Shown here: piece after piece, positions 6,649 through 48,773 of the stretch
Layout of the letters: each line of letters opens with the position of its first letter
Numbering within the stretch: position 1 is the stretch's first letter
Origin: Imperialibacter roseus
GTDB lineage: Bacteria; Bacteroidota; Bacteroidia; Cytophagales; Cyclobacteriaceae
NCBI RefSeq assembly: GCF_032999765.1
Contig: NZ_CP136051.1
Span: 1,774,417-1,838,416, forward strand
Reading direction: 5' to 3'
Length of the DNA: 64,000 bases
Made by a program: the position numbers and the translations under genes
Notes under the pieces: model-generated
What the model saw: only the letters and a program-made list of their open reading frames with translations
Databases searched by the model: none
Told to the model about the DNA's origin: nothing

Positions 6649-7704
6649 ATGGAAAACAGCGTCAAAATCCACAAAGTTATTCGTGAGACCAGGGATGCCA
6701 TCACTTTACAATTTGAAAACCATCCTTCGTTACGCAATTATTCACCAGGTCAGTTCATTAACATTTATGGTGAAGTAGACAATGAAACGATCAGCAGGTC
6801 ATACTCTTTTTCTTCATCACCCCTGGCTGGTGAACGGCCCTCAGTAACCATCAAAAAGATGGCCGGTGGACGCCTGAGCAGGCAGCTGGTTGAAACGGTG
6901 GGGCAAGGTGATTCGCTCACCGTAAGTGAGCCAGCAGGCAGGTTTGGGCTGAGAAATGAAGGTAGTCCTGTCAAGCACATGATCTTCATCGCAGGAGGAA
7001 GCGGAATTACCCCCCTTTTTTCCATGATCAAGACGATTCTTAATTCCAAATCTCAGCAGCAAGCGCCGCCGCTGGTCACCCTGCTTTATTCTAACAAGGA
7101 GCCTGATACTGTCATTTTTGGAGATCGGCTTGATGAGCTCGAGGCGCAAAACCCCGGCAGGTTCAGCGTGATTCATTTTTTGCAAAAGTGGGAAGCCAAT
7201 CGCCAGATGGACAATGTGCATCATGGCTATATTAATAAAGCCAGGCTGGCTGCCTTTTTAGACAGCGGATATAGTGACGCAACTGAAATCTATCTATGTG
7301 GCCCTGAGGCGATGATGCAAGCCATATTGAAGGACCTTGAAGCGCTGAATTTTGACCTGAGTAAAGTGTACAGTGAGTCGTATCAGCCCACAGTTGCTTT
7401 GAGCCAATTTGAAGCAGAATCAAATGTGAGAAGGTCTGAGGTTACTTTTTTGAAGGGGGCTGAATCGTTTTCTCTGGAGCTATCAAGCGATGAGTTCATT
7501 CTGCAAACAGGGCTCAATAAAGGCCTGCAGCTTCCACATTCATGCAAGGAGGCCATGTGCGGAGCGTGCAAAGTGAAGCTGCTCTCAGGCAAAGTCAATA
7601 TGGTTGAAAACTATGCCCTTACAGACAGTCAACTCAAGGAGGGATATGTGCTTCTTTGCTCCGGAAAACCAGGCTCAGAGGCTATCACGCTTTCCTACAC
7701 CTGA
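6649..7704 (+). CDS. Ferredoxin-NAD(P)H reductase with C-terminal 2Fe-2S domain
   Basis: A 351-residue flavo-iron-sulfur reductase of the PaaE/HmpX-like type. The FAD domain (1-100) has RSYSFSS. The NAD(P) domain (about 105-235) has GGSGITPLFSM and LCGPEAMM. The plant-type ferredoxin domain (265-351) has all four cluster cysteines (C299-x4-C-x2-C and C near 339). It passes electrons from NAD(P)H to an unknown acceptor. Its place between copA and a copper chaperone is unusual. It might keep copper as Cu(I) or repair damaged Fe-S proteins (inference). Confidence 0.85.
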   Translation: MENSVKIHKVIRETRDAITLQFENHPSLRNYSPGQFINIYGEVDNETISRSYSFSSSPLAGERPSVTIKKMAGGRLSRQLVETVGQGDSLTVSEPAGRFGLRNEGSPVKHMIFIAGGSGITPLFSMIKTILNSKSQQQAPPLVTLLYSNKEPDTVIFGDRLDELEAQNPGRFSVIHFLQKWEANRQMDNVHHGYINKARLAAFLDSGYSDATEIYLCGPEAMMQAILKDLEALNFDLSKVYSESYQPTVALSQFEAESNVRRSEVTFLKGAESFSLELSSDEFILQTGLNKGLQLPHSCKEAMCGACKVKLLSGKVNMVENYALTDSQLKEGYVLLCSGKPGSEAITLSYT

Positions 7705-7728
7705 ATTATGAAATACAAGCCGGGAATT

Positions 7729-7742
7729 GTGTAACGATCCCG
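7729..7742 (+). promoter_or_regulatory. Candidate copper-regulon box, copy 3
   Basis: TGTGTAACGATCCC lies 47 bp upstream of the small chaperone gene. It shares TGTAACG plus a C run with the box at 3585, which suggests a separate promoter for the operon that starts here. Confidence 0.35.
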
Positions 7743-7789
7743 AATCACAAACAAGCTAATTTTACAATACAATTTAAATTCAAAATAAA

Positions 7790-8002
7790 ATGGAAACATT
7801 AAAGTTCAAATCAAACATCAAGTGTACTGGGTGTATCGAAAAAGTGACCCCTTTCCTTAATGAAGCAGCCGGCGCTGAAAAATGGGAAGTTGATCTCAAG
7901 AATCCTGAGAAAATTCTTACGGTTCATGCTGAAGGAGTTACGTCTGAGCAGATTAGCCAGGCAATGCAAAAAGCAGGCTACGTAGCAGAAGTAATCAGCT
8001 AA
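7790..8002 (+). CDS. Small HMA-type copper chaperone
   Basis: A 70-residue cytoplasmic protein of the CopZ/Atx1 size and fold with the metal site CTGC (Cys12, Cys15). The usual Met before the first Cys is replaced by Lys (IKCTGC). It probably delivers Cu(I) to CopA or to the AraC-HMA sensors. It is followed after 5 bp by the DUF3347 gene and then the multicopper oxidase, so these three form a tight operon. Confidence 0.85.
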   Translation: METLKFKSNIKCTGCIEKVTPFLNEAAGAEKWEVDLKNPEKILTVHAEGVTSEQISQAMQKAGYVAEVIS

Positions 8003-8007
8003 TCACG

Positions 8008-8493
8008 GTGAAAGCGATGCTATTCTTGCTGGGGGCTGCCCTTTCTGTGGGCAGCCTTTCAGCTCAAAGCGGATCAATGAACCAGATGCTTAATGACTAT
8101 CTGGTGGTGAAGGAAGCCCTTGTAAAAGGTGACGTTAAGCAAGCGTCGACTGGCGCTGGTCAGCTAGTGGCAACAATTACGACAGTCGACTTAGCGACGC
8201 TGAGTGAGACCGATAAGAAAGCGTTTTCAGCAGTGAGCGCTGAGCTACTAAAGCAGGCACAGGTCATTGCAGGTGCAAAGGAGGTTGAAAAGCAAAGAGC
8301 TGGCCTTGCTGCACTTTCGCAGCAACTGTGGCCATTGGTCAAAGGATCTGACGCAATAGGCAGAACGGTTTTCTATGACTACTGTCCCATGAAACAGAGC
8401 TATTGGCTAAGCGCAGAGGTGGCTATTCGAAATCCATTTTATGGAAGTCAGATGCTTGGTTGTGGCAAAGTGGACGACAAGATCAATGAATAG
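8008..8493 (+). CDS. DUF3347 secreted protein (copy 1)
   Basis: A 161-residue exported protein with a signal peptide ending near LSAQS. The start is a GTG at 8008. An ATG at 8017 would remove the basic residue before the hydrophobic core. The C-terminal part carries the family signature FYDYCPMKQSYWLS, then NPFYGSQMLGCG, with two conserved cysteines and methionines that look suited to copper. DUF3347 domains also occur attached to CusB-type efflux proteins, so a periplasmic copper-binding role is likely (inference). Its last codons overlap the start of the oxidase gene, which suggests coupled translation. Confidence 0.8.
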   Translation: MKAMLFLLGAALSVGSLSAQSGSMNQMLNDYLVVKEALVKGDVKQASTGAGQLVATITTVDLATLSETDKKAFSAVSAELLKQAQVIAGAKEVEKQRAGLAALSQQLWPLVKGSDAIGRTVFYDYCPMKQSYWLSAEVAIRNPFYGSQMLGCGKVDDKINE

Positions 8494-8497
8494 ACTG

Positions 8498-10624
8498 ATG
8501 AAGAAACTGCTGTTATTTTTAGCATGTTTGCCAGGGTTTGGGTCGGCATTTACGCAACAGCTGGTGAGGTATGACCTGACCGTCACCGATACGGTGGTAA
8601 ATTACACCGGCAAGGCAAAAATGGCCATAGCCATCAACGGTCAGCTACCAGCACCGACACTGCATTTTATCGAAGGCGATACAGCTGAAATTCATGTGCA
8701 TAACAAAATGCACCATGAAACATCCATCCACTGGCATGGCTTGATACTGCCAAACGAGCAAGACGGGGTTCCATACCTCACCACCACGCCGGTCAAGGGC
8801 ATGAGTACCCATATTTTTCGCTTCCCCATCGTTCAGAGCGGCACTTATTGGTATCATTCGCACACCATGCTGCAGGAGCAACTCGGCATGTATGGGGCTT
8901 TCATTATCAGCAAAAGGGAGACTGACCCGATGCAGGAATATACCATGCTGCTCAGCGACTGGAGCAATGAAAACCCCAATCAGATTGAGAGATCCCTGCA
9001 CAATGCGACCGATTGGTATGCCATAAAAAAGGGAGCCGCCCAGAGTTATTGGGAGGCTGGCAAAGCCCATCACCTGGGCACGAAATTCGGCAACGAATTC
9101 AAGCGGATGATGGCCATGGACGTAAGCGACGTGTATTATGAAAGAGTGTTGCTTAATGGGCTTCCAGCCCAGGCGGCCGCTTTTGCCGCAGGTGAACAGG
9201 TGAGGCTCAGGATTATCAACGGCAGCGCTTCTACCTACTTCTGGCTGAAATTTTCCGGCGGCAAGATGTCGGTAGTTGCCAACGACGGGGCCGACGTGGT
9301 GCCGGTGGAGGTAGACCGATTGATTGTGGGCGTATCAGAAACCTACGACGTAGTCGTCACAATACCTGGTGCTGGAAAATATGAATTCCTTGCCACCTCG
9401 GAAGACCGCACCCAAAGCGCCTCTCTTTGGCTGGGTGAGGACAAGGAGGTTCCTGCGGGGGCAATGCCACGGCTCAAGTACTTTGAAGGAATGAAAATGA
9501 TGAATGACATGATGACCGTAGGTGGCAAAATGGAAGACATGGGCATGAACATGAGTTTGCAGCAAATGGACATGAATACTGTGATGTACCCCGAGATTGT
9601 GGACAGCAGCGAGCCTACCGTTACCCTCAACTACAGCATGTTGAAGTCACCTGTGGAAACTACTTTGCCCGATGTGCCCACCCGTGAGCTAAAATTTGAG
9701 CTTACTGGCAACATGAATAGGTATGTGTGGTCAATTGATAACAAGACTGTTTCCGAAACAGACAAAATCCTGATCCGGAAAGGTGAAAATGTGCGCATTG
9801 TGATCTACAATAATTCAATGATGCGGCATCCAATGCACCTGCATGGCCATTTTTTCAGAACCCTGAACGGGCAAGGCACCTACTCGCCGATGAAAACGGT
9901 GTTGGATATTTTGCCTATGGAAACCGACACCATCGAGTTCCATGCGTCTGAAGAGTACGGTGACTGGTACTTTCATTGCCATATTCTTTACCATATGATG
10001 TCGGGCATGGGCAGGATATTTTCCTACGAAGGCAGTCCGGCAAATCCTGAGCTAGGCAACCCTAAGAAGGCCCTTCGAAAGGTGTATCATGATGATCGGC
10101 GCTTCTATTCCGGCGCAGAAATTAGCCTTGAAAGCAGTGGGAGCGATGGAGAGGTTTGGGTGGCCAATACCCGCTGGTCGCTACAAACGGAGTGGCGGCT
10201 TGGGTTCAATCAAACCACAGGGCAAGAATCTGAGAGTCATATTGGGAGGTATATTGGCAGAAACCAATTCTTTATGCCCTATGCCGGTTGGGATGTCCGC
10301 AGCAGATCGGTGGAGGGCGATGAGAAAAATATTTTTGGAATTCGCAACACAAAGGATAACAGAAGCGTAATATGCTTTGGCCTGGAATACACGCTGCCCT
10401 GGTTTGTAAAAACAGACCTTAGGGTCGACCACACAGGGAATGTTCGCATCCAGTTCGCTCGTGAGGACATACCGGTTTCTTCCCGAGTCAGGCTTTGGGG
10501 CGTATGGAACACTGACATGGAATATAGCGTTGGGGCCAAGTATATTATTACCAAGTACTGGTCACTTTCCACACACTACGACAGCGATATGAAGTGGGGT
10601 GGTGGATTGTCGCTGACCTACTAA
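8498..10624 (+). CDS. Multicopper oxidase (CopA/PcoA-like) fused to a C-terminal barrel-like domain
   Basis: The start at 8498 gives a normal signal peptide (MKKLLLFLACLPGFG). An ATG at 8486 overlapping the previous stop is also possible. Residues about 20-510 are a multicopper oxidase with all four copper-site motifs: HWHGL (about 78), WYHSH (about 117), HPMHLHGHF (about 444) and HCHILYHMMSGM (about 492). A Met-rich segment (about 331-364, many MxxM) precedes the last oxidase domain. It probably oxidises Cu(I) in the periplasm. The last ~195 residues are not oxidase. They alternate polar and aromatic residues and end GGGLSLTY, like an outer-membrane beta barrel of the CopB/PcoB kind. Confidence 0.85.
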   Translation: MKKLLLFLACLPGFGSAFTQQLVRYDLTVTDTVVNYTGKAKMAIAINGQLPAPTLHFIEGDTAEIHVHNKMHHETSIHWHGLILPNEQDGVPYLTTTPVKGMSTHIFRFPIVQSGTYWYHSHTMLQEQLGMYGAFIISKRETDPMQEYTMLLSDWSNENPNQIERSLHNATDWYAIKKGAAQSYWEAGKAHHLGTKFGNEFKRMMAMDVSDVYYERVLLNGLPAQAAAFAAGEQVRLRIINGSASTYFWLKFSGGKMSVVANDGADVVPVEVDRLIVGVSETYDVVVTIPGAGKYEFLATSEDRTQSASLWLGEDKEVPAGAMPRLKYFEGMKMMNDMMTVGGKMEDMGMNMSLQQMDMNTVMYPEIVDSSEPTVTLNYSMLKSPVETTLPDVPTRELKFELTGNMNRYVWSIDNKTVSETDKILIRKGENVRIVIYNNSMMRHPMHLHGHFFRTLNGQGTYSPMKTVLDILPMETDTIEFHASEEYGDWYFHCHILYHMMSGMGRIFSYEGSPANPELGNPKKALRKVYHDDRRFYSGAEISLESSGSDGEVWVANTRWSLQTEWRLGFNQTTGQESESHIGRYIGRNQFFMPYAGWDVRSRSVEGDEKNIFGIRNTKDNRSVICFGLEYTLPWFVKTDLRVDHTGNVRIQFAREDIPVSSRVRLWGVWNTDMEYSVGAKYIITKYWSLSTHYDSDMKWGGGLSLTY

Positions 10625-10840
10625 GTACGGGCTTTCCAGTAATTGTATTAACCAACACGTACGAATTTAAAAAACCATCATTTGAAGATGATGGCAGGGA
10701 GAGGAGTGCTTTTTTCCGGCGATTCGGCTGGCCGTGAGCTCGTTATCCTTTGGTAGTTGATTTTTTCCTTAGTCGGATTTGCAGGATAATTATACGCTTT
10801 TTTCAACAACACATTATTTAAAGGTAAAACTCAAAATTCA

Positions 10841-12262
10841 ATGAAAACTCATTTTTTCAAATCATTTTTTTATGCTGTTGCCATTGGTGCAACGCTGTTT
10901 GGCTGTTCCAAAGACGACGATCAGGAACCAGGTCCGGTAGCCGTGTCAGTCGAATTTTTAAACACTACCCACAATATTGCTGAGGTAGGCGATTCCGTGC
11001 AGGTGGTAGTGGCTTTAAGCGCTGATGCGCCAACCGACGGCACTGTTTTTGTCAAATTATTTGGCGATGCGGTGTATGGTGAGGACTTCGTTACTAAGCC
11101 AGCGGCAGTGAACGGCGTGGTGAGAATGGACTTTCAGGAGGTAATGCGCACAAACATTTTTACAGTGCACAGGCTGAAAAACGACAACAAAAGGGACGAG
11201 TCGACAATTACTCTCACTGTAGCCAACGTATCGCAAGGCTATTTGATTGGTAGTAAGGCAACGTCAAATGTAAAGCTTTTGGAATTGCCCGAAGAGCCAG
11301 CGGGAGCGAGAATCAATTTCGAGGATGTATTCCTTCACCTTTCAGAATACGAAGTGAATGGGTACGCTGTTAATCTCAAGCTGACCAATCCTTTGACTGA
11401 AAAGGAAACGGTAACGCTTGTGATTGACGCACCCAACGGTCGCAATTATGGGACTCATTTCACTACTGCACCAGCAGCTGTTCAAAATATGATTGAGATA
11501 GAGGTTTTGCCCGGTGCAAGCGCTGTTCAGTTCATCATCTTTCCAGCCGATGATGCGTTGGTGCTAGGTACCTATGAGATGACCTTCAGCATTGATGCCA
11601 CTACGGGCAGGCTTGAAAAAGGAGAGATTTTGCAGTTGGCTGTGCGAATAGAAGAAAATGATGAAGAACAAGCAGTTGAGGTGCACAGCATTGCTGAGCT
11701 TAGGGACTACTTCGATGAGTTTGATGGCGAATTTTGGATGTCGACTGACTATTTAATCGAGGGAGTGATCACGTCGGCAGACAACGTCATCGATGACAAA
11801 ACAGCCTATATTCAGGATGAAACAGGTGGCATTATGTTGCGTTTCACCGGTAGGAACTTCCTGAAAACGGGCGATAGAGTTCGCATCAATCTTGTGAACG
11901 GATCTGGTAATAATTTCAATGGACAAAAGGGCATTGCCAATGTACATGATATGCTTGGCGTGGTGCTTCAGCACAACCAGACAGTAGCGCCCGAAGTAAT
12001 TACTTTTGACCAACTCTATTCAGGAAACTATGAAGGAAAGAGGGTGACTATTACTGGTGTTAAGTTTAGAGATGCCGACGGGGCCAAGGCCTTTAATGGT
12101 ACTTGGGCCATTGTTTCTGAGGCATCCGGTGCGTATGTTAATACCTATCCGAGGGCATCTTTCAGTCATTTTAAGCTACCGGAAGGAACTGTAACTGTAA
12201 CCGGTATAGTCGGGGACTGGGGCCGGATTTTACCGCAAGATCTCCAGGATATTCTTAGGTAA
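10841..12262 (+). CDS. DUF5689 lipoprotein with Calx-beta-like repeats
   Basis: A 473-residue lipoprotein with lipobox TLFGCSK (Cys22). Two segments (about 30-150 and 155-270) resemble Calx-beta-type immunoglobulin-like domains. Residues about 275-473 form a DUF5689 domain, an OB-fold-like domain common in Bacteroidota surface proteins (VITSADN, AYIQDETGGI, GDRVRI motifs). Function is unknown. It may bind a ligand at the outer membrane. It follows the oxidase after 216 bp and ends at a clear terminator, so it is the last gene of that transcript or its own unit. Confidence 0.78.
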   Translation: MKTHFFKSFFYAVAIGATLFGCSKDDDQEPGPVAVSVEFLNTTHNIAEVGDSVQVVVALSADAPTDGTVFVKLFGDAVYGEDFVTKPAAVNGVVRMDFQEVMRTNIFTVHRLKNDNKRDESTITLTVANVSQGYLIGSKATSNVKLLELPEEPAGARINFEDVFLHLSEYEVNGYAVNLKLTNPLTEKETVTLVIDAPNGRNYGTHFTTAPAAVQNMIEIEVLPGASAVQFIIFPADDALVLGTYEMTFSIDATTGRLEKGEILQLAVRIEENDEEQAVEVHSIAELRDYFDEFDGEFWMSTDYLIEGVITSADNVIDDKTAYIQDETGGIMLRFTGRNFLKTGDRVRINLVNGSGNNFNGQKGIANVHDMLGVVLQHNQTVAPEVITFDQLYSGNYEGKRVTITGVKFRDADGAKAFNGTWAIVSEASGAYVNTYPRASFSHFKLPEGTVTVTGIVGDWGRILPQDLQDILR

Positions 12263-39968: not shown

Positions 39969-40952
39969 ATGAGAAAATATCTGTCGATGCACCATTACCC
40001 GATTTCAGTTTCCCTTGTCATTTTGTTCCTGTCAACTGCGTGCAGCAAAGGGCCTGTCGGCGACTTATCTATTTTCCTCAGTACCCCCGATTTGGTGGCC
40101 TTCTGGACTTTCGGCGAAGAACCCGGGGAGCAGCGTGTGTCGGTGGGAGGCAGCCAAACACACTCGCTATCGGAAGTGGGTGGGCCCATTGCCCGGGCCG
40201 ATGTCGGGCCTTTTTCAGGTTACTCGGCCTACCTCGATGGCAGGCAATACCTGAGCATTCCTTATCAGGAAACCGGCGACCTCAACATCTGTGGGCCCAA
40301 TGCGCAGGTATCCATGTTTGCAGTTGTGAAGATTCATGACCTTGAGCAGAGCCGCACCATTGCTGGCATGTGGAGCGAAGGGAAAGGAAAAGATGATGAC
40401 ACAGGCACCCGGCAGTATGCCATGCTGATGAACATGCCTACCTACGGCGGGCCAAGACAGCTCGTGCCTCACATTTCTGCCGAAGGCGGCGTTACCATGC
40501 GGGCCGACAGCACCAAATTCCCCTGGTGTGCCGACTATGCTGCTACCAAACAGGAAGTGCCAGAGGAACGCTGGTGCACCCTGGCTTTTACGTACGACGG
40601 GAAATACATCAAAGCGTATATCGATGGGGTGTTTGAAGAAAGAATGCCAGACCCTGCCAGCGACAAAAGGGAGGACCCCTACTTTATGCAGGAAGGGCCT
40701 GGTGGTGGCAACCGGGGCATGAATCCCTACTATCATGGGCGGGGCATATTCTGCTACGATGAAACGCTGCACGGTCAAACCAAGCCCGACGGTGGTTCAG
40801 CTTTTACGGTCGGGGCACGCTACGCAGTGGGCTCCATGCTGAAGGAAGCCACCATTGGCTATTTTGGCGGCCTGGCGGTATTTGATAGAGCGCTGACGGA
40901 TGAGGAGATATTGAAGCTGCATGAGGCAAGCCATATAGAGCAATTGAAGTAG
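39969..40952 (+). CDS. LamG-domain lipoprotein
   Basis: A 327-residue exported lipoprotein with lipobox LSTACSKG (Cys about 25); a start at Met7 (39987) is also possible. The mature part is a single concanavalin A-like (LamG type) domain: LVAFWTFGEEPGEQ at the start, AFTYDGKYIKAYIDGV in the core and GGLAVFDRALTDEEILKLH at the end. Such domains bind glycans or other surface ligands. It is divergent from the dehydratase gene, with a 211-bp spacer. Confidence 0.82.
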   Translation: MRKYLSMHHYPISVSLVILFLSTACSKGPVGDLSIFLSTPDLVAFWTFGEEPGEQRVSVGGSQTHSLSEVGGPIARADVGPFSGYSAYLDGRQYLSIPYQETGDLNICGPNAQVSMFAVVKIHDLEQSRTIAGMWSEGKGKDDDTGTRQYAMLMNMPTYGGPRQLVPHISAEGGVTMRADSTKFPWCADYAATKQEVPEERWCTLAFTYDGKYIKAYIDGVFEERMPDPASDKREDPYFMQEGPGGGNRGMNPYYHGRGIFCYDETLHGQTKPDGGSAFTVGARYAVGSMLKEATIGYFGGLAVFDRALTDEEILKLHEASHIEQLK

Positions 40953-40997
40953 GTGTCTAAAACTGTTTCAGCTGGGTATCTTCGCAGCCTTCGCCTT

Positions 40998-41059
40998 GGT
41001 TCGTGTCTCACGAAACAGGCGGAGGGGAGTAACGAGTGCGTGAAGATATGCACCAGAAC
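40998..41059. repeat. GTTCTGG-type hairpin repeat, degenerate copy
   Basis: Contains GTTCGTGTCTCACGAAAC (a near-perfect small hairpin) and ends GCACCAGAAC, the tail seen in the other members at 50376, 52311, 54842, 59405 and 60114. It lies downstream of the LamG gene. Confidence 0.45.
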
Positions 41060-41422
41060 CTTTGGATAGATAGCTTTATCTATTTCAAAGCTTCTGTCGA
41101 TATGGTGATTACATCCAGTCGTTAATTTGCGAAGGGGTATTCTTGAAGTGGAAAAAGGCTATACAATTTACCGACAGCTGCACTGACTACTTGAATAGCC
41201 CGCCGCAGACTTGCAGTGCTTTTGCCCAGCCTGGGCAAAGCTGCCGCAAGCTTGTTTTGGATTTGCCCGGGTTGGGCAGGGGGTGGGGAAGAAGTTGTGC
41301 AAGCCAAAGGCATTGCACCAGCGTTCAGTGCTTTTAGCTGGCTTTGCTGGTTGGACTTGCGAGGCATTGCGCTGACATTTGGTGGCTTAGCTCAGCGGTT
41401 TAAAAGGGAAGAGGTTCAGGCT
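41060..41422. other. Intergenic DNA with GC-rich palindrome, no gene seen
   Basis: About 360 bp without a credible gene. It holds a perfect palindrome, TTTGCCCAG-C-CTGGGCAAA (41221-41239), and repeated short words such as CAGTGCTTT and GCATTG. Composition is much richer in GC than the broken nuclease gene that follows. Confidence 0.5.
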
Positions 41423-42281
41423 TTACGCAGCTCTGCCGCAGCATTTTTTATACTTAATGCCACTTCCACATGGGCAGTACTCATTTCGTCCTATTTTCTT
41501 ATTGAATTTGATAGTCTTTCCTTCATTTATGCCGTCAAATAGAGTTTTGACGTAGCCTTCTAGTTCCTCATCATATTGCCATTTTTCATTATTGAAAGCA
41601 ATAGCATCAATAGTCCTTCCACTATCCTTGAGGCAACCAATTCCAATCCAGACATTAGCTCTGCTTTTATATTTTCTACCTCTGCTATGAAGGTAAAGTC
41701 TTTCCTGTAGCTCTTCGAGATTATTATTGTGCCAAGAAATGAAGGTTAACCCATGAGTTGATCGCTCGGGTCCTGACATTAAAGTAAAATTATGAGTCTT
41801 TCCATCTAGCTGGGTTTTTTCTTTAGTAAGCCGCAGTTGATTGGTCAAGTTGTCCCTTGACACTTCAGACCAATCGAGAAGATGAAATATTACGTCGGTC
41901 TTTTTTGGGAAGTTGAAATCGTCAATTTGATAGATTAGATCATCAAAGAATTCATTTTTCCATTTGTTTCTAACTTTATCAGTTTGAGATGAAGTCTCGA
42001 TGCCGAGTTTGTGAGGGTAATAATTTCTGTCAATCAGTTGCCCGTATTCACGGTCAATCAACACATGATCGTATTCTGGATTTTTCCATAATTTCTGCAG
42101 AAGATGAAAGCCCAAAAAATGCATTTCTTCGTCGGAATGATAGTGATCCATCAGATTGATTCTTTGCCTCACATAATAGAATAGATCATAGGGGCTATTC
42201 AGGTAAAATAGAATTAAATCTAAATCGAAGATTGTTAAGACAAGAGGGTAAGGGGCTGTATCATTTTTTTCAAGCAGTGAT
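41423..42281 (-). pseudogene. 3' half of an IS-interrupted gene: SEC-C domain part
   Basis: The frame is open from the left target duplication (42275-42281) to the stop at 41423, 283 codons beyond the duplication. It ends with a SEC-C zinc motif (CPCGSGIKYKKCC) and is AT-rich compared with its neighbours. The possible internal starts (GTG at 42172, ATG at 42151) would cut into sequence that reads as protein right up to the insertion (DLDLILFYLNSPYDLFYYV). It continues the reading frame of the fragment at 43580-45040 exactly. See that entry for the joined protein. Confidence 0.82.
42275..42281. repeat. Left target-site duplication of the IS element
   Basis: CAGTGAT, repeated at 43580-43586 on the other side of the element. 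Confidence 0.75.
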
Positions 42282-43579
42282 GGTAGTATTACATTAACTG
42301 TGTCAGTCTTTAAATATTAAGCTTCAGTCTGTCTCCAAAGATAATGGAAAGTTGAGCTAAAGTCTGGTTCCAGTTGTGTACTGGTCTGTTCCACTTTGAA
42401 CAGATATTCTCCTGAGCCAGGAACAGCAGTTTCATCAAAGCATCTTCAGAAGTAAAGGCTCCTTTGCTCTTGGTTACGTTGCGTATCTGTCTGTAAAACC
42501 CTTCAATGATATTGGTGGTATAGATGATACGCCTGATCTCTTTGGAGTATTGGAAGTAGCAGGAAAGCCTGGCCCAGTTCTTTCTCCAGGAGTCGATCAC
42601 TTTAGGGTATTTGCTGCCCCAGACAGCAGCTAGCTGATCCAGCTGTCTCTCTGCTAACTCTTTGGTGGAAGCCTGATAGACGGGCTTAAGATCCTTCATA
42701 AATGCCTTGAGGTCTTTGTAGGACAAGTACTTCTGAGAGTTACGGATTTGATGCACCACACACAGCTGTACCTCAGTATTAGGGAAGATTGACTCTATGG
42801 CATCAGCAAAGCCTGTCAGGTTATCTATGCTAGCAATGAAGATGTCTTCAACACCACGGTTCTGCAGATCTGTAAGCACCTGCAACCAGAACTTAGAGCC
42901 CTCATTTTCATTGATATACATGCCCAGAAGCTCTTTGTAGCCCTCCTGATTCAATCCAATCATACAATACACTGCACGATTGAGTACCCTGCCTTCATGA
43001 CGAACTTTGTAGTGAATAGCATCCAGCCAAACAAAGGGATAGACCGACTCCAGAGGCCTGCTGCGCCACTCTTGCACCAGAGGTAGTATCTTGTCTGTTA
43101 CACGGCTTATGGTGGCGGTAGACACGTCTAGGCCATACATTTCCTGTAAATGATCGCTGATATCACCATAGCTGGCGCCACGGGCATACAGGGCTAGTAT
43201 TTGCCTGTCCAGGTCAACACCTAAGGTTCGCTGGCGCTTGGGAACCATCTCTGGATCGAAGGTACCATTGCGATCCCTGGGCGTGTCTATCTCGACATTG
43301 CCCAGACTCGTTTTCAAAACCTTACTGCCCTTACCATTCTTGCGATTAGGCACTTCCTCGTCCAGATGAGCATCCAGCTCACCCGAAAGAGCTTCTTCAA
43401 GAAATTCCTTAAGTAATGGAGTGAAGACACCTTCTTTGCCTAACAGGCTGTCTCCTTGCTTGAGCCGCTGAGTAGCGCTCTTCTTGAAGGTCTCATAGTC
43501 AAATTTTCCTTTTTCCATTTATATCAAGTTATCGATTTTTACTAAATCAATGACTTGACACAGTTATTGTAACACTCTC
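42282..43579. mobile_element. Complete IS256-family insertion sequence, 1298 bp
   Basis: Bounded by 24-bp imperfect inverted repeats (42282-42305 and 43556-43579, 20 of 24 matching; shared core TAACTGTGTCA) and by a 7-bp direct duplication CAGTGAT. IS256-family elements usually make 8 bp, so one end may be off by a base. It carries a single intact transposase gene. It split a predicted nuclease-like gene, and both halves are still in frame with each other, so the insertion appears recent. Confidence 0.9.
42310..43518 (-). CDS. IS256-family (mutator-type) transposase
   Basis: A 402-residue transposase of full length. The DDE catalytic residues can be placed: Asp in FVWLDAIHYKV, Asp in IASIDNLTGF, and Glu in NIIEGFYRQIRN. 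The zone between them has the family's C-x2-H block (LCVVHQIRNS). No frameshift or internal stop is present, so it is probably active. Confidence 0.95.
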   Translation of the reverse strand: MEKGKFDYETFKKSATQRLKQGDSLLGKEGVFTPLLKEFLEEALSGELDAHLDEEVPNRKNGKGSKVLKTSLGNVEIDTPRDRNGTFDPEMVPKRQRTLGVDLDRQILALYARGASYGDISDHLQEMYGLDVSTATISRVTDKILPLVQEWRSRPLESVYPFVWLDAIHYKVRHEGRVLNRAVYCMIGLNQEGYKELLGMYINENEGSKFWLQVLTDLQNRGVEDIFIASIDNLTGFADAIESIFPNTEVQLCVVHQIRNSQKYLSYKDLKAFMKDLKPVYQASTKELAERQLDQLAAVWGSKYPKVIDSWRKNWARLSCYFQYSKEIRRIIYTTNIIEGFYRQIRNVTKSKGAFTSEDALMKLLFLAQENICSKWNRPVHNWNQTLAQLSIIFGDRLKLNI

Positions 43580-45040
43580 CAGTGATCGGGCTTGGTGAGT
43601 TAGTGCAGGATAGTTTTCGGTCGTAACAATGAGAATGTATACATCTTCTATATTATCAATGATATTAAGCCTATTTCCATTTTCATCACGGAAAATCGAG
43701 TTTTTCTCAATGATTTTTGTTCGGCTTGTCATTCCCTGTTCATAGGCATCTTGAACAGCTCCTTTAAAATCGGTCTTCAGTTGATTTGAATTTCCTTTGC
43801 GAGACAATTGGGTTAACTTCTTGGACTTTACCTGAACGCAGATTGCCTTGTTGCCTAGAATGCATAGAACGTCAATATCAGTATCATCGTACCCTCTTTT
43901 TGATTCAATTTTTATGGACTTATAAATTCTGTTTTCACCAACAACAGCTTTAAGGAGTTCAAAGGCGATTTCCTCTCCAGCTTTACCTCTACTTTCCGCC
44001 AGGCTATTTCGATAGGATTTGTCTTCAGTCATCCAGTAGTAGGGGCTTTCGTAAACTGCTTCAAAAACAGAAAATATGATTGGGACAAAATATTTATCTG
44101 ATCCGAATGGAATTATAGGGCTCGCTGAGAGAATGTTAAAATCTCCGATGTTTTGAAAATTTTCATTTCGTCCAAATGGAGAGTTGGCTATTGAGAATTT
44201 TTTTAAGAATCTTGAAATTTTGTGTTTTGGAAGAAAGTCGCTTGGTGTGATAGAAAATAAATCTAGAAGTCCCAGATAAAATGATTTCCACCCGTTTTCA
44301 GTTATTTGAGTTGGATCTAGCCCTTTAGCAAGATTACTTTCTGCTTCAAAAAATTCCGAAAATTGATAAAACTCCAATAATGCAAGGAAGTCATCTCTCT
44401 CTTTTTTTGGAATTGACTTACCTTTTCTTAAGTCCTTGAGGATTTGCTGCTTGTTTTCTTTTAGCCCTATGAAATTAACTCTTTGAAACTTGTCTTGATG
44501 TAGTTTTTTGATGTGAGTTACAATTTCAAGGATATTGTCGAAGTCAAAGTCAGCGTTTCTGTTCAACCATTCTTCATTGTATTTATACTTTCTTTTAAGA
44601 AACTCTAGATATTGAATGTCATATATTCCATCACCAGAATAGAAGATTGGTTCGATGAACATATTCTCGTCTCCAAAAAAATCTTTATCGTTTGGAGCGT
44701 TTTGAGAGCTAGGATTTTTGATTAGTTGTTCTATTTTAGCTTGGAAGGGTGCGGTGGTCGAATAATGCAATTCTTCCATGAGGTGATAGGTTTTTTTCTT
44801 TAGCTCAATTAATTCAAATGGAGATTTTGGGGTTTCTAGTGAAATTTCATCTTGAATTAAGAACCCAAGAAGCATAAGAATTTCGTTCTTATTCAGTCTC
44901 GATCGATAGTCGGTCTCGTGCATCGCTTCCACATTTAAGTGAAAGTCATCCACTAGGATTAAGCAAATGGTGTATAGGAACCCCTTTGTTCTTACCAGCT
45001 GTTTTATATCCATCAGTACTTCGGATGTATCTCTTAGCAT
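43547..45040 (-). pseudogene. 5' half of an IS-interrupted gene: PD-(D/E)XK nuclease-like part
   Basis: 487 native codons (starting ATG 45040, or 45013) followed by 10 codons read from the IS end. The first ~350 residues match nothing I recognise. Residues about 352-410 have the pattern of a PD-(D/E)XK restriction-endonuclease fold: E356-E357, Asp390 in DTDIDVL, then Q403-V-K405 in CVQVKSKK. Joined to 41423-42274 it gives a protein of about 770 residues with a nuclease-like centre and a C-terminal SEC-C motif. A truncated protein with the nuclease part could still be made. Low GC suggests horizontal origin. A defence role is possible but unproven. Confidence 0.78.
43580..43586. repeat. Right target-site duplication of the IS element
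   Basis: CAGTGAT, the partner of 42275-42281. In the gene's sense it encodes the same in-frame Ser-Leu codons (TCA CTG) on both sides. Confidence 0.75.
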
Positions 45041-45217
45041 TATTCGTATAACTTTAGATTAAAGTCTGTGCGCAGAAAGTGTTTTTGAGTAGCTGGTGTA
45101 ATTAGACCCTTTTCTTTTTGGAAGATAGGATAGATGAATCTAGCATATTTAGCGAAAAAAAAGTCAGTATTTTGCTAGGGTTTATCTAAGAATATAGAAA
45201 AAATGCAGCCCCGCCCT

Positions 45218-45368
45218 AGCCCTCGTTGTAAACGAGGGCTTCTGAGGCTTGCGCTTGCAGCGCATCTTTACATTCCAGACCAAATAGAGGAGAGATAAAC
45301 ATGCGTTACAAACGCATATTCCAAACGCCCTCGTTACACATGTCCGCCCGCTGGCGGAAACGAGGGCG
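45218..45368. repeat. Nested palindromic repeat region
   Basis: Three hairpins in 150 bp. AGCCCTCGTT-GTA-AACGAGGGCT (45218-45240) is perfect. ATGCGTT-ACA-AACGCAT (45301-45317) is perfect. CGCCCTCGTT ... AACGAGGGCG (45326-45368) encloses CCGCC ... GGCGG. The first and third share CCCTCGTT/AACGAGGG. It ends 6 bp short of the stop of the BNR protein gene. The layout resembles REP-type elements. No REP transposase is in the window. Confidence 0.7.
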
Positions 45369-45374
45369 AGTTCC

Positions 45375-48300
45375 CTACTTCTTCCCCTCAATATCAATCT
45401 TAGCGTTCTCATTGATCAGCTTGTCGTTCAGCTGGGTCACTTGCTTGTCGAGCAGGGTTTGGAATTCTTTCTGCACCCTAACCATCCGTTCGTTCAGCAC
45501 GCCTTTTACCTCGGCCTGCTGGCTGGTGGGCTTAAAGTCCGCTCCCTTGGCCGTTATGTCGCTCGCCAGGGCAGAAAGCCTGCCATAGAGCTGCATCGGC
45601 GTGCGGAAGGCGTCTTCCCGGGCTCCAGTCATGTGAATGTCGTAGAGCTGGCCCGCAATGGCCGTGGCCTGGCCCTGCACCGCCATCAGCTCCTTCTTAA
45701 GTTTGGTGTTTTTGATCGTGGGGATCATCTCCTCCAGCTCTTTTCTGATCCACTCAACCCGGTCAATCATCTCTACCACGGTGTTCATAGCGTCACGCAG
45801 CTGCAGGGAGAACGCCACCTGCTCTTCTATTTCCTGCTGGGTGCCTTCAGTTGAAGGATCTTTCAGTACGTCGACGGTTTTGATGATTTCCGTATCGCCC
45901 ACGTTTATTTTGACGAAATACTGTCCGGGCGCTACCCTTGGTCCCAGCTGTCCGCCCATCAGGTCGAGGTCCCAGGTCACAAGAGGCCGCCAGCCTTCTC
46001 CGTTCATTTCTACCCAGGGGCGGCCTTCTGGCTTCGTCCTGAGCTTGGGCTTAAAGGTGGGCTCGTAGCGCAGATCCCACACCGTTCGGTTTATGCCAGC
46101 AGTTTGCTTGCCTTTGAGGGTGCGGACCACCTCCTGCTGCTGGTTGAGGATGGTGATCACCACTGGCTGTTCCACAGAGTCCTTCAGGTAGTAGTTCACG
46201 CCCACACCATAGGCCGGGTTTTGTCCGGCGTTCAAGCTAGGCCCATCGGTTTTGATGGCTTCTTTTTCCTGGAAGCGGTAGGCTTTGCGCAAGTCAAATG
46301 CATGCACCGCTGTCGCCTGCACCTCTTCAGAAAACTGCCGGATAGGGGAGATGTCGTCCATGATATAATACCCACGGCCGTAGGTAGCCACCACCAGGTC
46401 GTCGAAGTTTTCCTGAATAGCCAGCCAGTACACAGGCGCAGGAGGGAGGTTGTTTTGCAACGGCAGCCAGGTGGCGCCATCGTTGGGCGAGTAGTACACG
46501 CCATTGTCGGTGCCGGCAAACAGCAGCCCCTGCTTCTTCGGGTCTTCCCTCACCACGTGTGCGAAGCTCAGGATAGACTTAGGAATGCCGTCGCTGATTT
46601 TCTTCCAGGTCTTGCCGTAGTCGCTCGTCTTGAAGATATAAGGATCAAAGTCGGCCATTTGGTGCAGGTCGATGGTGATGTAGGCGGTGCCTGCGTTGTA
46701 GCGTGACGGCTCTATGTTCGAGATAGTACCCCAGGGCGCCACGGGAATGTTTTTGCTTACGTTCGTCCAGGTTTTGCCGCCATCCTGGGTCAGCTGCACC
46801 TGTCCGTCGTTGCTGCCTGTCCAGATCAAGCCTTTTTGAATGGGCGATTCTTCCACAGCAAACAACGTAGCGCCATCAAACGTCATCAGGTTGTCGATGG
46901 CAATGCCGCCAGAGTTCTGCTGATGGGTTTTGTCGTTCAGCGTCAGGTCGGGGCTGATGAGCTGCCAGCTTTGGCCACCGTCGTCGGACTGGTGCACATA
47001 CTGGCTGCCCACATACACCCGGTGTGGCGTGTGCGGAGAAAAGCTCAGCGGGAAGTTCCAGTGCCAGCGATACTTCAGATCGGCGGGCTTCCAGCCATAC
47101 CCGGCTTCCGGCCACACCCTCACCTCCCGGGCATGGCCTGTGCGCATGTCGAAGCGCTGCAGGCCACCGTCGTAGCAACCTGACCAAATGATGTTGTTGT
47201 CGAGCGGATCAGGCTTGGCGAAACCACTTTCGCAGCCGCCCACACCCTGCCACAAACCAAGGGGGATATAACCCTGCAAGCTGTTGCTGGGGCCCCGGTA
47301 AGAGTAGCCATCCTGCCGGTTGCCGTACACAAAATAAGGAGCATTGTTGTCCACGGCCACGTGGTACATCTGCGCAATGGGCAGCACCACCCGCTGGAAA
47401 CTCTTGCCATGGTTCAGGCTGATGCTGGCGCAGCCATCGTGGGCCACCATCATGCGGTCGGCGTTGGTGGGGTCAATCCACATATCGTGGTTGTCGCCAC
47501 CACCACGGGGAGGGCGCTTTTCCAGCGTTTTGCCGCCATCCAGCGACTGCGAGAAGCGAACGCTCATGAAGTAGATTTCATTTTCATTGGCGGGAGAAAC
47601 CGCAATACGAGTGTAGTAGGGTGCCCGCTCTGCCATGTCGTGGTGATTGCTGATGAGTGTCCAGCTTTCACCGGCGTTTTCTGTGCTGTACAGGGCTGGG
47701 CTTTTGTCTTCAAACAGGGCGTACACTTTGTTGGGGTTGCCGGGCGCTACTGCCACAGCTGTTTTGCCAACAGGATGGTCTTTGCCTCCCGGCAGGCCAT
47801 TAGCGGCCATCGGCTTCCAGGTATCGCCGCCATCGGTAGATTTATAAATGCCGCCACCGCCACCGCCGCTGCGCAGTCCCCAGGTGTTGATATGAATGGA
47901 CCACATGGCAGCGTAAAGCACATTGGGGTTGGTGGGATCCATGCTCAGGTCTGCAGCGCCTGTGTTTTCATCCACAAACAGCACTTTTGTCCACGTCTTG
48001 CCACCGTCTTTGGTGCGGTAAATACCCCGTTCCTGCTGTGGGCCGTAGGTATGGCCGAGGGCTGCTGCATATACAATGTCAGGATTCGAAGGATGCACAA
48101 TCACCCGGCCAATGCGGGCTGTTTTTTCCAGTCCCATATTGGTCCACGACTTACCAGCGTCGGTCGATTTGTAGATGCCGTTGCCTATAGAGTGCGCCGG
48201 ACGAATCAGGAAGGTTTCGCCGGTGCCCGCCCACACTGTAGAGGGCTCGGTCGGTGCCAAAGCCAGGGAGCCGATAGAGGAAACGTTCTGGTCGTCGAAG

Positions 48301-48617: not shown

Positions 48618-48664
48618 ATTAAAGAGGTTATTCTCTGCGGAAGTGCAGATGGAACCTTTTTAAT
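48618..48664. repeat. 48-bp double-stem palindrome, copy 1 (degenerate)
   Basis: ATTAAAGAGGTTAT ... GGAACCTTTTTAAT with the inner CTGCGGAAGTGCAG. It lies downstream of the sigma-factor gene. Related to the perfect copy at 50282 and to 52229. Confidence 0.6.
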
Positions 48665-48773
48665 CCGTTGCAGATAGTGACCTCGTTAATGCGTTTCGCT
48701 ACGGATAGCCAAGTGTCCATGGCAGCCTGCCAGTATTTTGGCATCAGCCTGCGCAATGATGGCGCAAGACTTA

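What the first reader, a model, noticed from the sequence alone, without database searches (positions are those of the whole stretch)
41423..45040. A predicted ~770-residue PD-(D/E)XK nuclease/SEC-C protein split by a fresh IS256-family insertion
The element (42282-43579) has 24-bp inverted repeats and a CAGTGAT duplication. Removing it and one duplicate joins the two frames exactly (Ser-Leu codons shared) into one protein: ~350 unknown residues, a nuclease-like core (E356, D390, QVK 403-405), ~280 residues ending in a SEC-C zinc motif. The region is AT-rich against its surroundings. This architecture is unknown to me and could be a defence or DNA-processing system. Function is inference.
Basis: partly seen in the sequence, partly recalled or inferred. 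Interest (0 to 1): 0.75.

Follow-up and report, generated by a model that had tools for sequence, protein, structure and literature searches.

The report
Transposon-broken NERD/SEC-C nuclease, likely anti-phage
A jumping gene has recently cut a single bacterial gene in two; intact copies of that gene are scattered through distant bacteria, plasmids and phage satellites, and it most likely makes a stand-alone DNA-cutting enzyme that protects against viruses, though no activity has been tested.

Summary
A 1298-bp IS256-family element (42282-43579; imperfect 24-bp ends, 20 of 24 matching; 7-bp duplication CAGTGAT) interrupts one minus-strand gene (41423-45040). The two pieces match neighbouring parts of one intact 785-aa protein: residues 15-502 (48% identity) and 504-783 (50%). 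The insertion is recent: another copy in the genome is 100% identical.

The gene belongs to an unnamed family: an N-terminal region of about 300 aa, a NERD-type PD-(D/E)XK core (E-D-[Q/E]-x-K in 40 of 40 rows), a C-terminal region and usually a SEC-C zinc tail. It is sparse and spread across phyla. No full-length match was found in PADLOC (16 members), PHROGs (E. coli copy), NCBIfam (window pieces) or PDB.

Context points to defence. The only two carriers among 5426 E. coli genomes have it in a P4 satellite exactly between psu and the integrase, the published anti-phage hotspot. Elsewhere it adjoins or lies near Avs2, Mokosh, mad3-like and BREX genes.

Best reading: a stand-alone, infection-triggered nuclease defence gene (confidence about 0.6), inactive in this genome. 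Eight of 45 copies counted are broken.

The parts
41423..45040 (-). Whole interrupted gene (N-terminal part, insertion, C-terminal part)
43580..45040 (-). 5' part of the gene (N-terminal region and NERD core). The ORF as it stands, 43547-45040, runs 33 nt into the IS and stops after 497 aa
   Evidence: match to an intact relative
43727..43990 (-). NERD (PF08378) match, residues 351-438
   Evidence: E=3.8e-5, above the Pfam cut-off
43826..43975 (-). Predicted PD-(D/E)XK active site: E356, D390, Q403, K405
   Evidence: motif kept in 40 of 40 rows
42282..43579 (.). IS256-family insertion sequence, 1298 bp
42310..43518 (-). IS256-family transposase, 402 aa
42282..42305 (+). IS terminal inverted repeat, left (20 of 24 matching)
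43556..43579 (-). IS terminal inverted repeat, right
42275..42281 (.). Target duplication CAGTGAT, left copy
43580..43586 (.). Target duplication CAGTGAT, right copy
41423..42281 (-). 3' part of the gene: C-terminal region and SEC-C tail, open to its stop codon
41432..41488 (-). SEC-C zinc motif (PF02810)
   Evidence: E=1.3e-7, 31.8 bits against a cut-off of 20.4
40937..45375 (.). Segment without a match in the same-genus genome G001: the flanking genes match at 81% and 89-90%, with 1.86 kb of other DNA between them there

Best explanation
The intact gene encodes a stand-alone anti-phage / anti-mobile-element nuclease. The N-terminal region (about 300 aa) and the C-terminal region would sense or gate infection (inferred). 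The NERD-type PD-(D/E)XK domain, with a complete E-D-Q-x-K site, would cut nucleic acid, probably DNA (residues shown, activity inferred). The SEC-C zinc tail would help binding or recruitment and is dispensable, being absent in several relatives (absence shown, role inferred). The gene travels as single-gene cargo on plasmids, in P4-like satellites and near other defence genes (shown for relatives). In this genome a recent IS256-family insertion separates the N-terminal region and nuclease from the C-terminal part, so the system is very likely dead here: the remaining 497-aa ORF keeps the active-site residues but loses about 280 C-terminal residues (shown; loss of function inferred).
For: E. 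coli: 2 of 5426 genomes carry it, both annotated in a P4 satellite at ssrA between psu and the integrase; in GD33, PHROGs confirms psu (phrog_6366, E=4.4e-99), integrase and primase. PMC9122126, section 8 read, describes this slot as a reservoir of anti-phage systems; of the canonical P4 gene set plus 18 other systems tested there, seven gave robust resistance. Neighbours by profile: Avs2 (E=0), MkoA (2e-217 and 4.7e-181), PDC-S39 and PDC-S02, mad3-like (1.2e-107); by annotation: HsdS, an abortive-infection protein, AbiEii, brxL/pglZ. Active-site motif in 40 of 40 rows. Sparse and cross-phylum: in the tree, starred branches force at least 4 label changes for Bacteroidota and 5 for Pseudomonadota. 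Other NERD proteins are listed in defence systems (passage: Mokosh type I, Nhi-like, passages: PglW, DndF).
Against: No function was tested. The defence inference is by location, without a matched control; accessory plasmid DNA is rich in defence genes anyway. Three of 14 named contexts show no annotated defence gene (Rippkaea, Vibrio, Diaphorobacter; their neighbours were not scanned with PADLOC), two more only toxin-antitoxin genes. The window's own neighbours are metabolic or housekeeping. Six of ten large neighbours scanned singly had no PADLOC hit, nor did the two from G014. In PMC9122126, 12 of the 19 sets tested gave no robust resistance. No structure supports the domain boundaries.
Confidence: 0.6

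Rival explanations
1. A nuclease for DNA processing in mobile elements (plasmid transfer, maintenance or repair) rather than defence.
For: Many copies lie on plasmids, some near integrase, relaxase or partition genes. NERD was first named a DNA-processing-related domain (title in a reference list).
Against: In canonical P4 the same slot holds non-essential genes. Copies occur on chromosomes and plasmids of unrelated types, and I saw no constant partner gene in the contexts read.
Confidence: 0.2
2. An RNA-cutting or toxin-like growth-arrest protein that acts by suicide, with the PD-(D/E)XK site directed at host nucleic acid.
For: Frequent inactivation (8 of 45 copies counted) suggests cost. NERD domains are proposed as suicidal back-up effectors (passages of PMC12839542 and PMC10853773).
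Against: No antitoxin-like partner is constant in the contexts read. Some broken copies may be sequencing errors.
Confidence: 0.15
3. Two separate genes that happen to flank an IS.
For: A few relatives read as two ORFs (Bradyrhizobium, Salmonella plasmid, Nitrosomonas).
Against: Both pieces match one intact protein end to end, and those relatives break at other places.
Confidence: 0.02

Closest known systems
NERD (PF08378) nucleases, including those listed for Mokosh type I, Nhi-like, PglW and TALON
   Same: NERD-type PD-(D/E)XK core; the window piece passes the Pfam cut-off
   Different: No helicase, kinase or PLD domain passes in the six relatives scanned with Pfam; NERD sits mid-protein, usually followed at the end by a SEC-C tail. 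PADLOC MkoA matched 1 of 16 members, at E=0.042. Papers seen as passages only.
Shedu (SduA)
   Same: Single-protein nuclease defence (table passage of a review); that it has a regulatory region beside a PD-(D/E)XK domain is from a passage
   Different: No Shedu or DUF4263 match for the window's pieces in Pfam or PADLOC. Similar in plan only.
PADLOC PDC-S12 and E2 models and phrog_24700, with a SEC-C tail
   Same: Share about the last 25-30 residues (SEC-C)
   Different: Where coordinates were shown (window C piece, L017, E. coli copy) the match is confined to the tail.
P4 satellite psu-int cargo systems (PARIS, TIR-NLR, gop-beta-cII and others)
   Same: Same genomic slot in E. coli
   Different: Neither SEC-C nor NERD occurs in the main text of PMC9122126; its supplementary tables could not be read.
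IS256-family insertion sequences
   Same: Transposase family, imperfect inverted ends, short target duplication
   Different: Nothing unusual; duplications of 7, 8 and 7 bp (8-9 bp is the usual figure, recalled).

Membership tests
IS256 family | Transposase matches the family model | tested here: met
   NF033543 402 bits, cut-off 150
IS256 family | Terminal inverted repeats and target duplication | tested here: met
   20 of 24 matching; duplication 7 bp here, 8 and 7 bp at the two other copies
NERD (PF08378) | Profile match above the curated cut-off | tested here: met
   Window 24.6 against 22.1 bits. Of six relatives scanned four pass; L002 (15.4) and L010 (21.2) fall below
PD-(D/E)XK nucleases | E, D, (Q/E)xK active-site residues in order | tested here: met
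   40 of 40 rows (one row, G837, is a doubtful member)
PD-(D/E)XK nucleases | Restriction-endonuclease-like fold | not testable with these tools
SEC-C | CxC...CC zinc motif, profile match | tested here: met
   Window 31.8 against 20.4 bits. Strict pattern in 27 of 40 rows (all but the window's N piece); the 13 misses include two truncated copies and two near misses
Shedu (SduA) | DUF4263 or Shedu profile match | tested here: not met
   Absent from Pfam and PADLOC results for the window's pieces
Mokosh type I / Nhi-like | Helicase, kinase or PLD domains together with NERD (features recalled) | tested here: not met
   Only NERD and SEC-C pass their cut-offs in the six relatives scanned
PADLOC defence families of 2023 | Strong full-length match to a named model | tested here: not met
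   16 members scanned: best E over all members 8.4e-9 (PDC-S12); coordinates are given for the first member only, where matches lie in tail or core. E. coli copy: tail only
P4 psu-int hotspot cargo | Gene between psu and int of a P4-like satellite | tested here: met
   2 of 2 E. coli copies by annotation, checked by PHROGs in GD33; shown for relatives, not for the window gene
Anti-phage defence system | Protects cells from phage | not testable with these tools
   Needs plaque assays

The most novel reading that the evidence does not exclude
NERD-SEC-C proteins are a new, widespread family of single-gene anti-phage nucleases with large novel sensor regions on both sides of the active site. They are spread over at least four bacterial phyla, carried by P4-like satellites, plasmids and defence-gene neighbourhoods, and costly enough to be knocked out again and again, by transposons in at least two lineages (this genome and the Rippkaea plasmid).
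Probability: 0.5. Interest if true: 0.6.

Novelty: new variant of a known kind. Interest (0 to 1): 0.5.

Why it matters
A single-gene candidate defence nuclease with no full-length match in the profile libraries searched, found in the P4 hotspot of E. coli, can be tested at once in K-12. If active it would add a stand-alone nuclease whose trigger must lie in its own uncharacterised regions. The window copy also shows a horizontally acquired gene of this kind shortly after transposon inactivation. The IS insertion itself is ordinary.

Tried and rejected
Searches with the SEC-C tail included were swamped by unrelated SEC-C proteins: only L017-L023, 7 of the 80 loci kept, match over most of the query (474 candidates passed, 80 kept), 287 of 395 genomes 'match' but only seven (own genome included) over 400 or more model positions. 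Later searches used alignments without the tail.

PADLOC scan of nearest neighbours: 98 proteins from 27 family loci hit 136 models at 1e-10, 108 proteins from 27 unrelated SEC-C loci hit 15. Not used as a statistic: the output counts models, not proteins, and three UvrD-type helicases hitting many redundant GajB models account for much of it. One of the 27 family loci, L247 (G837), is a doubtful member.

The phage collection gave no match with two queries and one 43-residue tail match with a third. Solved structures: only SEC-C tails at E below 0.001; best E 0.91 and 0.12. Promoter and terminator counts do not clearly exceed shuffles. A hairpin upstream of the gene was checked as a repeat and is unique in the genome. 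Comparing strains with and without the IS was not possible: the only same-genus genome in the sample has no match to the gene. L104 and G837 (branch length 9.0) are doubtful members. A genus name looked up was a guess and is not used.
Full report
What is in the window. On the minus strand, 41423-45040 holds one gene cut by a 1298-bp IS256-family element at 42282-43579. The element's ends match at 20 of 24 positions and CAGTGAT abuts both sides. The own genome is one 6.75-Mb contig. It has 13 SusD-family matches, a family that among 14 control genomes rang only in a Bacteroides, so it is very likely Bacteroidota. It holds three copies of the element: the window's, one identical, one with 13 differences; duplications are 7, 8 and 7 bp. 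The insertion is therefore recent.

One gene, not two. A 772-aa intact relative in G014 runs through the junction at 45-46% identity to the two pieces. Apart from the insertion both pieces are open. As it stands, the first piece reads 33 nt into the IS and ends at 497 aa, keeping the nuclease core and losing the C-terminal part.

The protein. Pfam finds only NERD (residues 351-438) and SEC-C above their cut-offs. The residues E, D, Q/E and K of the active site are present in 40 of 40 aligned rows (41 rows less the window's C piece; G837 included although doubtful). A strict SEC-C pattern is in 27 of 40 rows (all but the window's N piece). Of the 13 without it, Rippkaea and Bradyrhizobium are truncated copies, two have near-miss motifs (sequences), and others such as L021, L101, L102 and L014 lack it. 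Shorter relatives (L003, L103, L242) keep the tail or a near miss but lack roughly the second half of the region before it. No solved structure matches outside the tail at E below 0.1.

Distribution. Window relatives: 1 of 97 other genomes. Same phylum: 6 of 394 other genomes match over 400 or more model positions. Phylum of the Pannonibacter genome: 4 of 397 others over nearly full length, one of these with an in-frame stop, plus one doubtful partial. Plasmids: 34 of 72,556 records at 1e-10, 19 of them Agrobacterium, four records only in part. E. coli: 2 of 5426 genomes. IMG/VR contigs hold members; the annotated phage collection gave none beyond one tail match. A Gracilibacteria copy is open for 681 aa when TGA is read as glycine, with 26 such codons; the window's two pieces match it at 33% and 38% over ranges that meet at residue 406. 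In a maximum-likelihood tree of 37 rows (four dropped: the window's C piece, a short paralogue and two near-duplicates) the phyla interleave: starred branches force at least four changes for Bacteroidota and five for Pseudomonadota, although both labels are more clustered than in most shuffles (3 of 500 as low for each). The window groups with G347 and G014 (100/99). I read this as repeated horizontal transfer with some vertical signal.

The site here. The same-genus genome G001 has both flanking genes (90% and 81%) but nothing that aligns to window 40937-45375; 1.86 kb of other DNA lies there (one 65-base match inside it is to window 48618-48679). It has a 323-aa ORF without Pfam or PADLOC match. 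With 36-37% GC in the gene against 48% in the window, the gene looks like acquired DNA at a variable spot.

Context elsewhere. I read 14 named contexts: 13 of the 34 plasmid records, within about 8 kb (left out were 18 further Agrobacterium records and three archaeal partial matches), and the E. coli P4 element (counted once). Seven have named defence-system genes by annotation or profile: Shewanella HsdS, Azonexus Avs2, Bradyrhizobium abortive-infection protein, Sphingomonas AbiEii, Polaromonas BREX, Agrobacterium and Rhizobium MkoA. One is the P4 hotspot. One, Pontibacter, has two PADLOC candidate families. Two have toxin-antitoxin genes only (Acuticoccus, Salmonella). Three have none annotated (Rippkaea, Vibrio, Diaphorobacter) and were not scanned. 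Profiles: of eight neighbours picked by hand, six hit PADLOC models (one only weakly) and the two from G014 did not; of ten large neighbours, four hit (mad3-like in Psychrobacter, E=1.2e-107; three helicase-like proteins) and six did not. There is no matched control for these contexts.

The P4 position is the strongest single clue. In both E. coli strains the gene lies between psu and the integrase beside ssrA; in GD33 psu, integrase and primase are confirmed by PHROGs. Section 8 of PMC9122126 reports this slot in 5,251 of 20,125 E. coli genomes as a reservoir of anti-phage systems; of the canonical P4 gene set and 18 other systems tested, seven protected robustly.

Decay. Of 45 copies counted, 8 are broken: the window (IS), Rippkaea (a transposase gene between two matching parts), Bradyrhizobium, Salmonella, Nitrosomonas and L100 (frame changes), L244 (in-frame stop), Polaromonas (only the C-terminal part). 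The 37 counted as intact are the rows less window, Rippkaea and Bradyrhizobium; they include near-duplicates and the doubtful G837. Not counted: L023 (other code), L104, L248 and the other partial matches. Some frame changes may be sequencing errors. Repeated loss fits a costly accessory gene.

Mechanism. Shown: active-site residues, domain order, spread, defence-rich settings of relatives, the insertion. Inferred: nuclease activity on DNA, sensing by the flanking regions, nucleic-acid or protein binding by SEC-C, defence as the purpose, death of the window copy. It works like Shedu in plan (passages) but is not a Shedu protein by profile.

Literature. Searches for SEC-C together with NERD found no paper, nor did SEC-C with 'anti-phage defense'. 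One search (SEC-C metal-binding, phage) listed one plasmid paper and one Vibrio phage paper with 'SEC-C motif' (PMC12038007); neither was read. The 30 papers listed show no 'SEC-C domain'. The library holds open PMC papers only and supplements could not be read, so the family may be listed in a table somewhere. PMC9519451 was searched by term: neither SEC-C nor NERD occurs in its main text. PMC10952713, PMC12458937, PMC12839542, PMC10853773 and PMC12948488 were seen as passages.

Verdict. The observation and the structural interpretation are right. The insertion is ordinary; the family is a good, apparently unnamed anti-phage candidate.

Noticed in passing
L186 (same-genus genome) 6993-8848: At the same spot between the same flanking genes the same-genus genome carries other DNA with a 323-aa ORF without Pfam or PADLOC matches: a variable spot.
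   Followed up: partly
L005 (Rippkaea plasmid) 7986-11125: The cyanobacterial copy is also interrupted by a transposase gene: matches to the family lie on both sides of it. The ends of that element were not determined.
   Followed up: partly
L023 2268-4313: A Gracilibacteria orthologue, 681 aa, has no ORF of 100 aa or more over the match under table 11 but is open under genetic code 25, with 26 TGA codons read as glycine: the gene has settled in a recoded lineage.
   Followed up: yes
L185 7992-10081: A copy without an annotated gene on a Salmonella plasmid reads as two overlapping ORFs of 266 and 430 aa.
   Followed up: partly
window 45219-45239: Near-perfect hairpin GCCCTCGTT...AACGAGGGC upstream of the gene, unique in the genome; perhaps a terminator.
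   Followed up: partly
L237 9505-15087: A member from the window's phylum has its copy directly beside RecD-like and UvrD-like helicases.
   Followed up: no
L003 1099-2724; L242 8801-10432; L103 9653-11644: Short variants keep the nuclease core but lack part of the C-terminal region; G014 carries a long and a short version on different contigs.
   Followed up: partly
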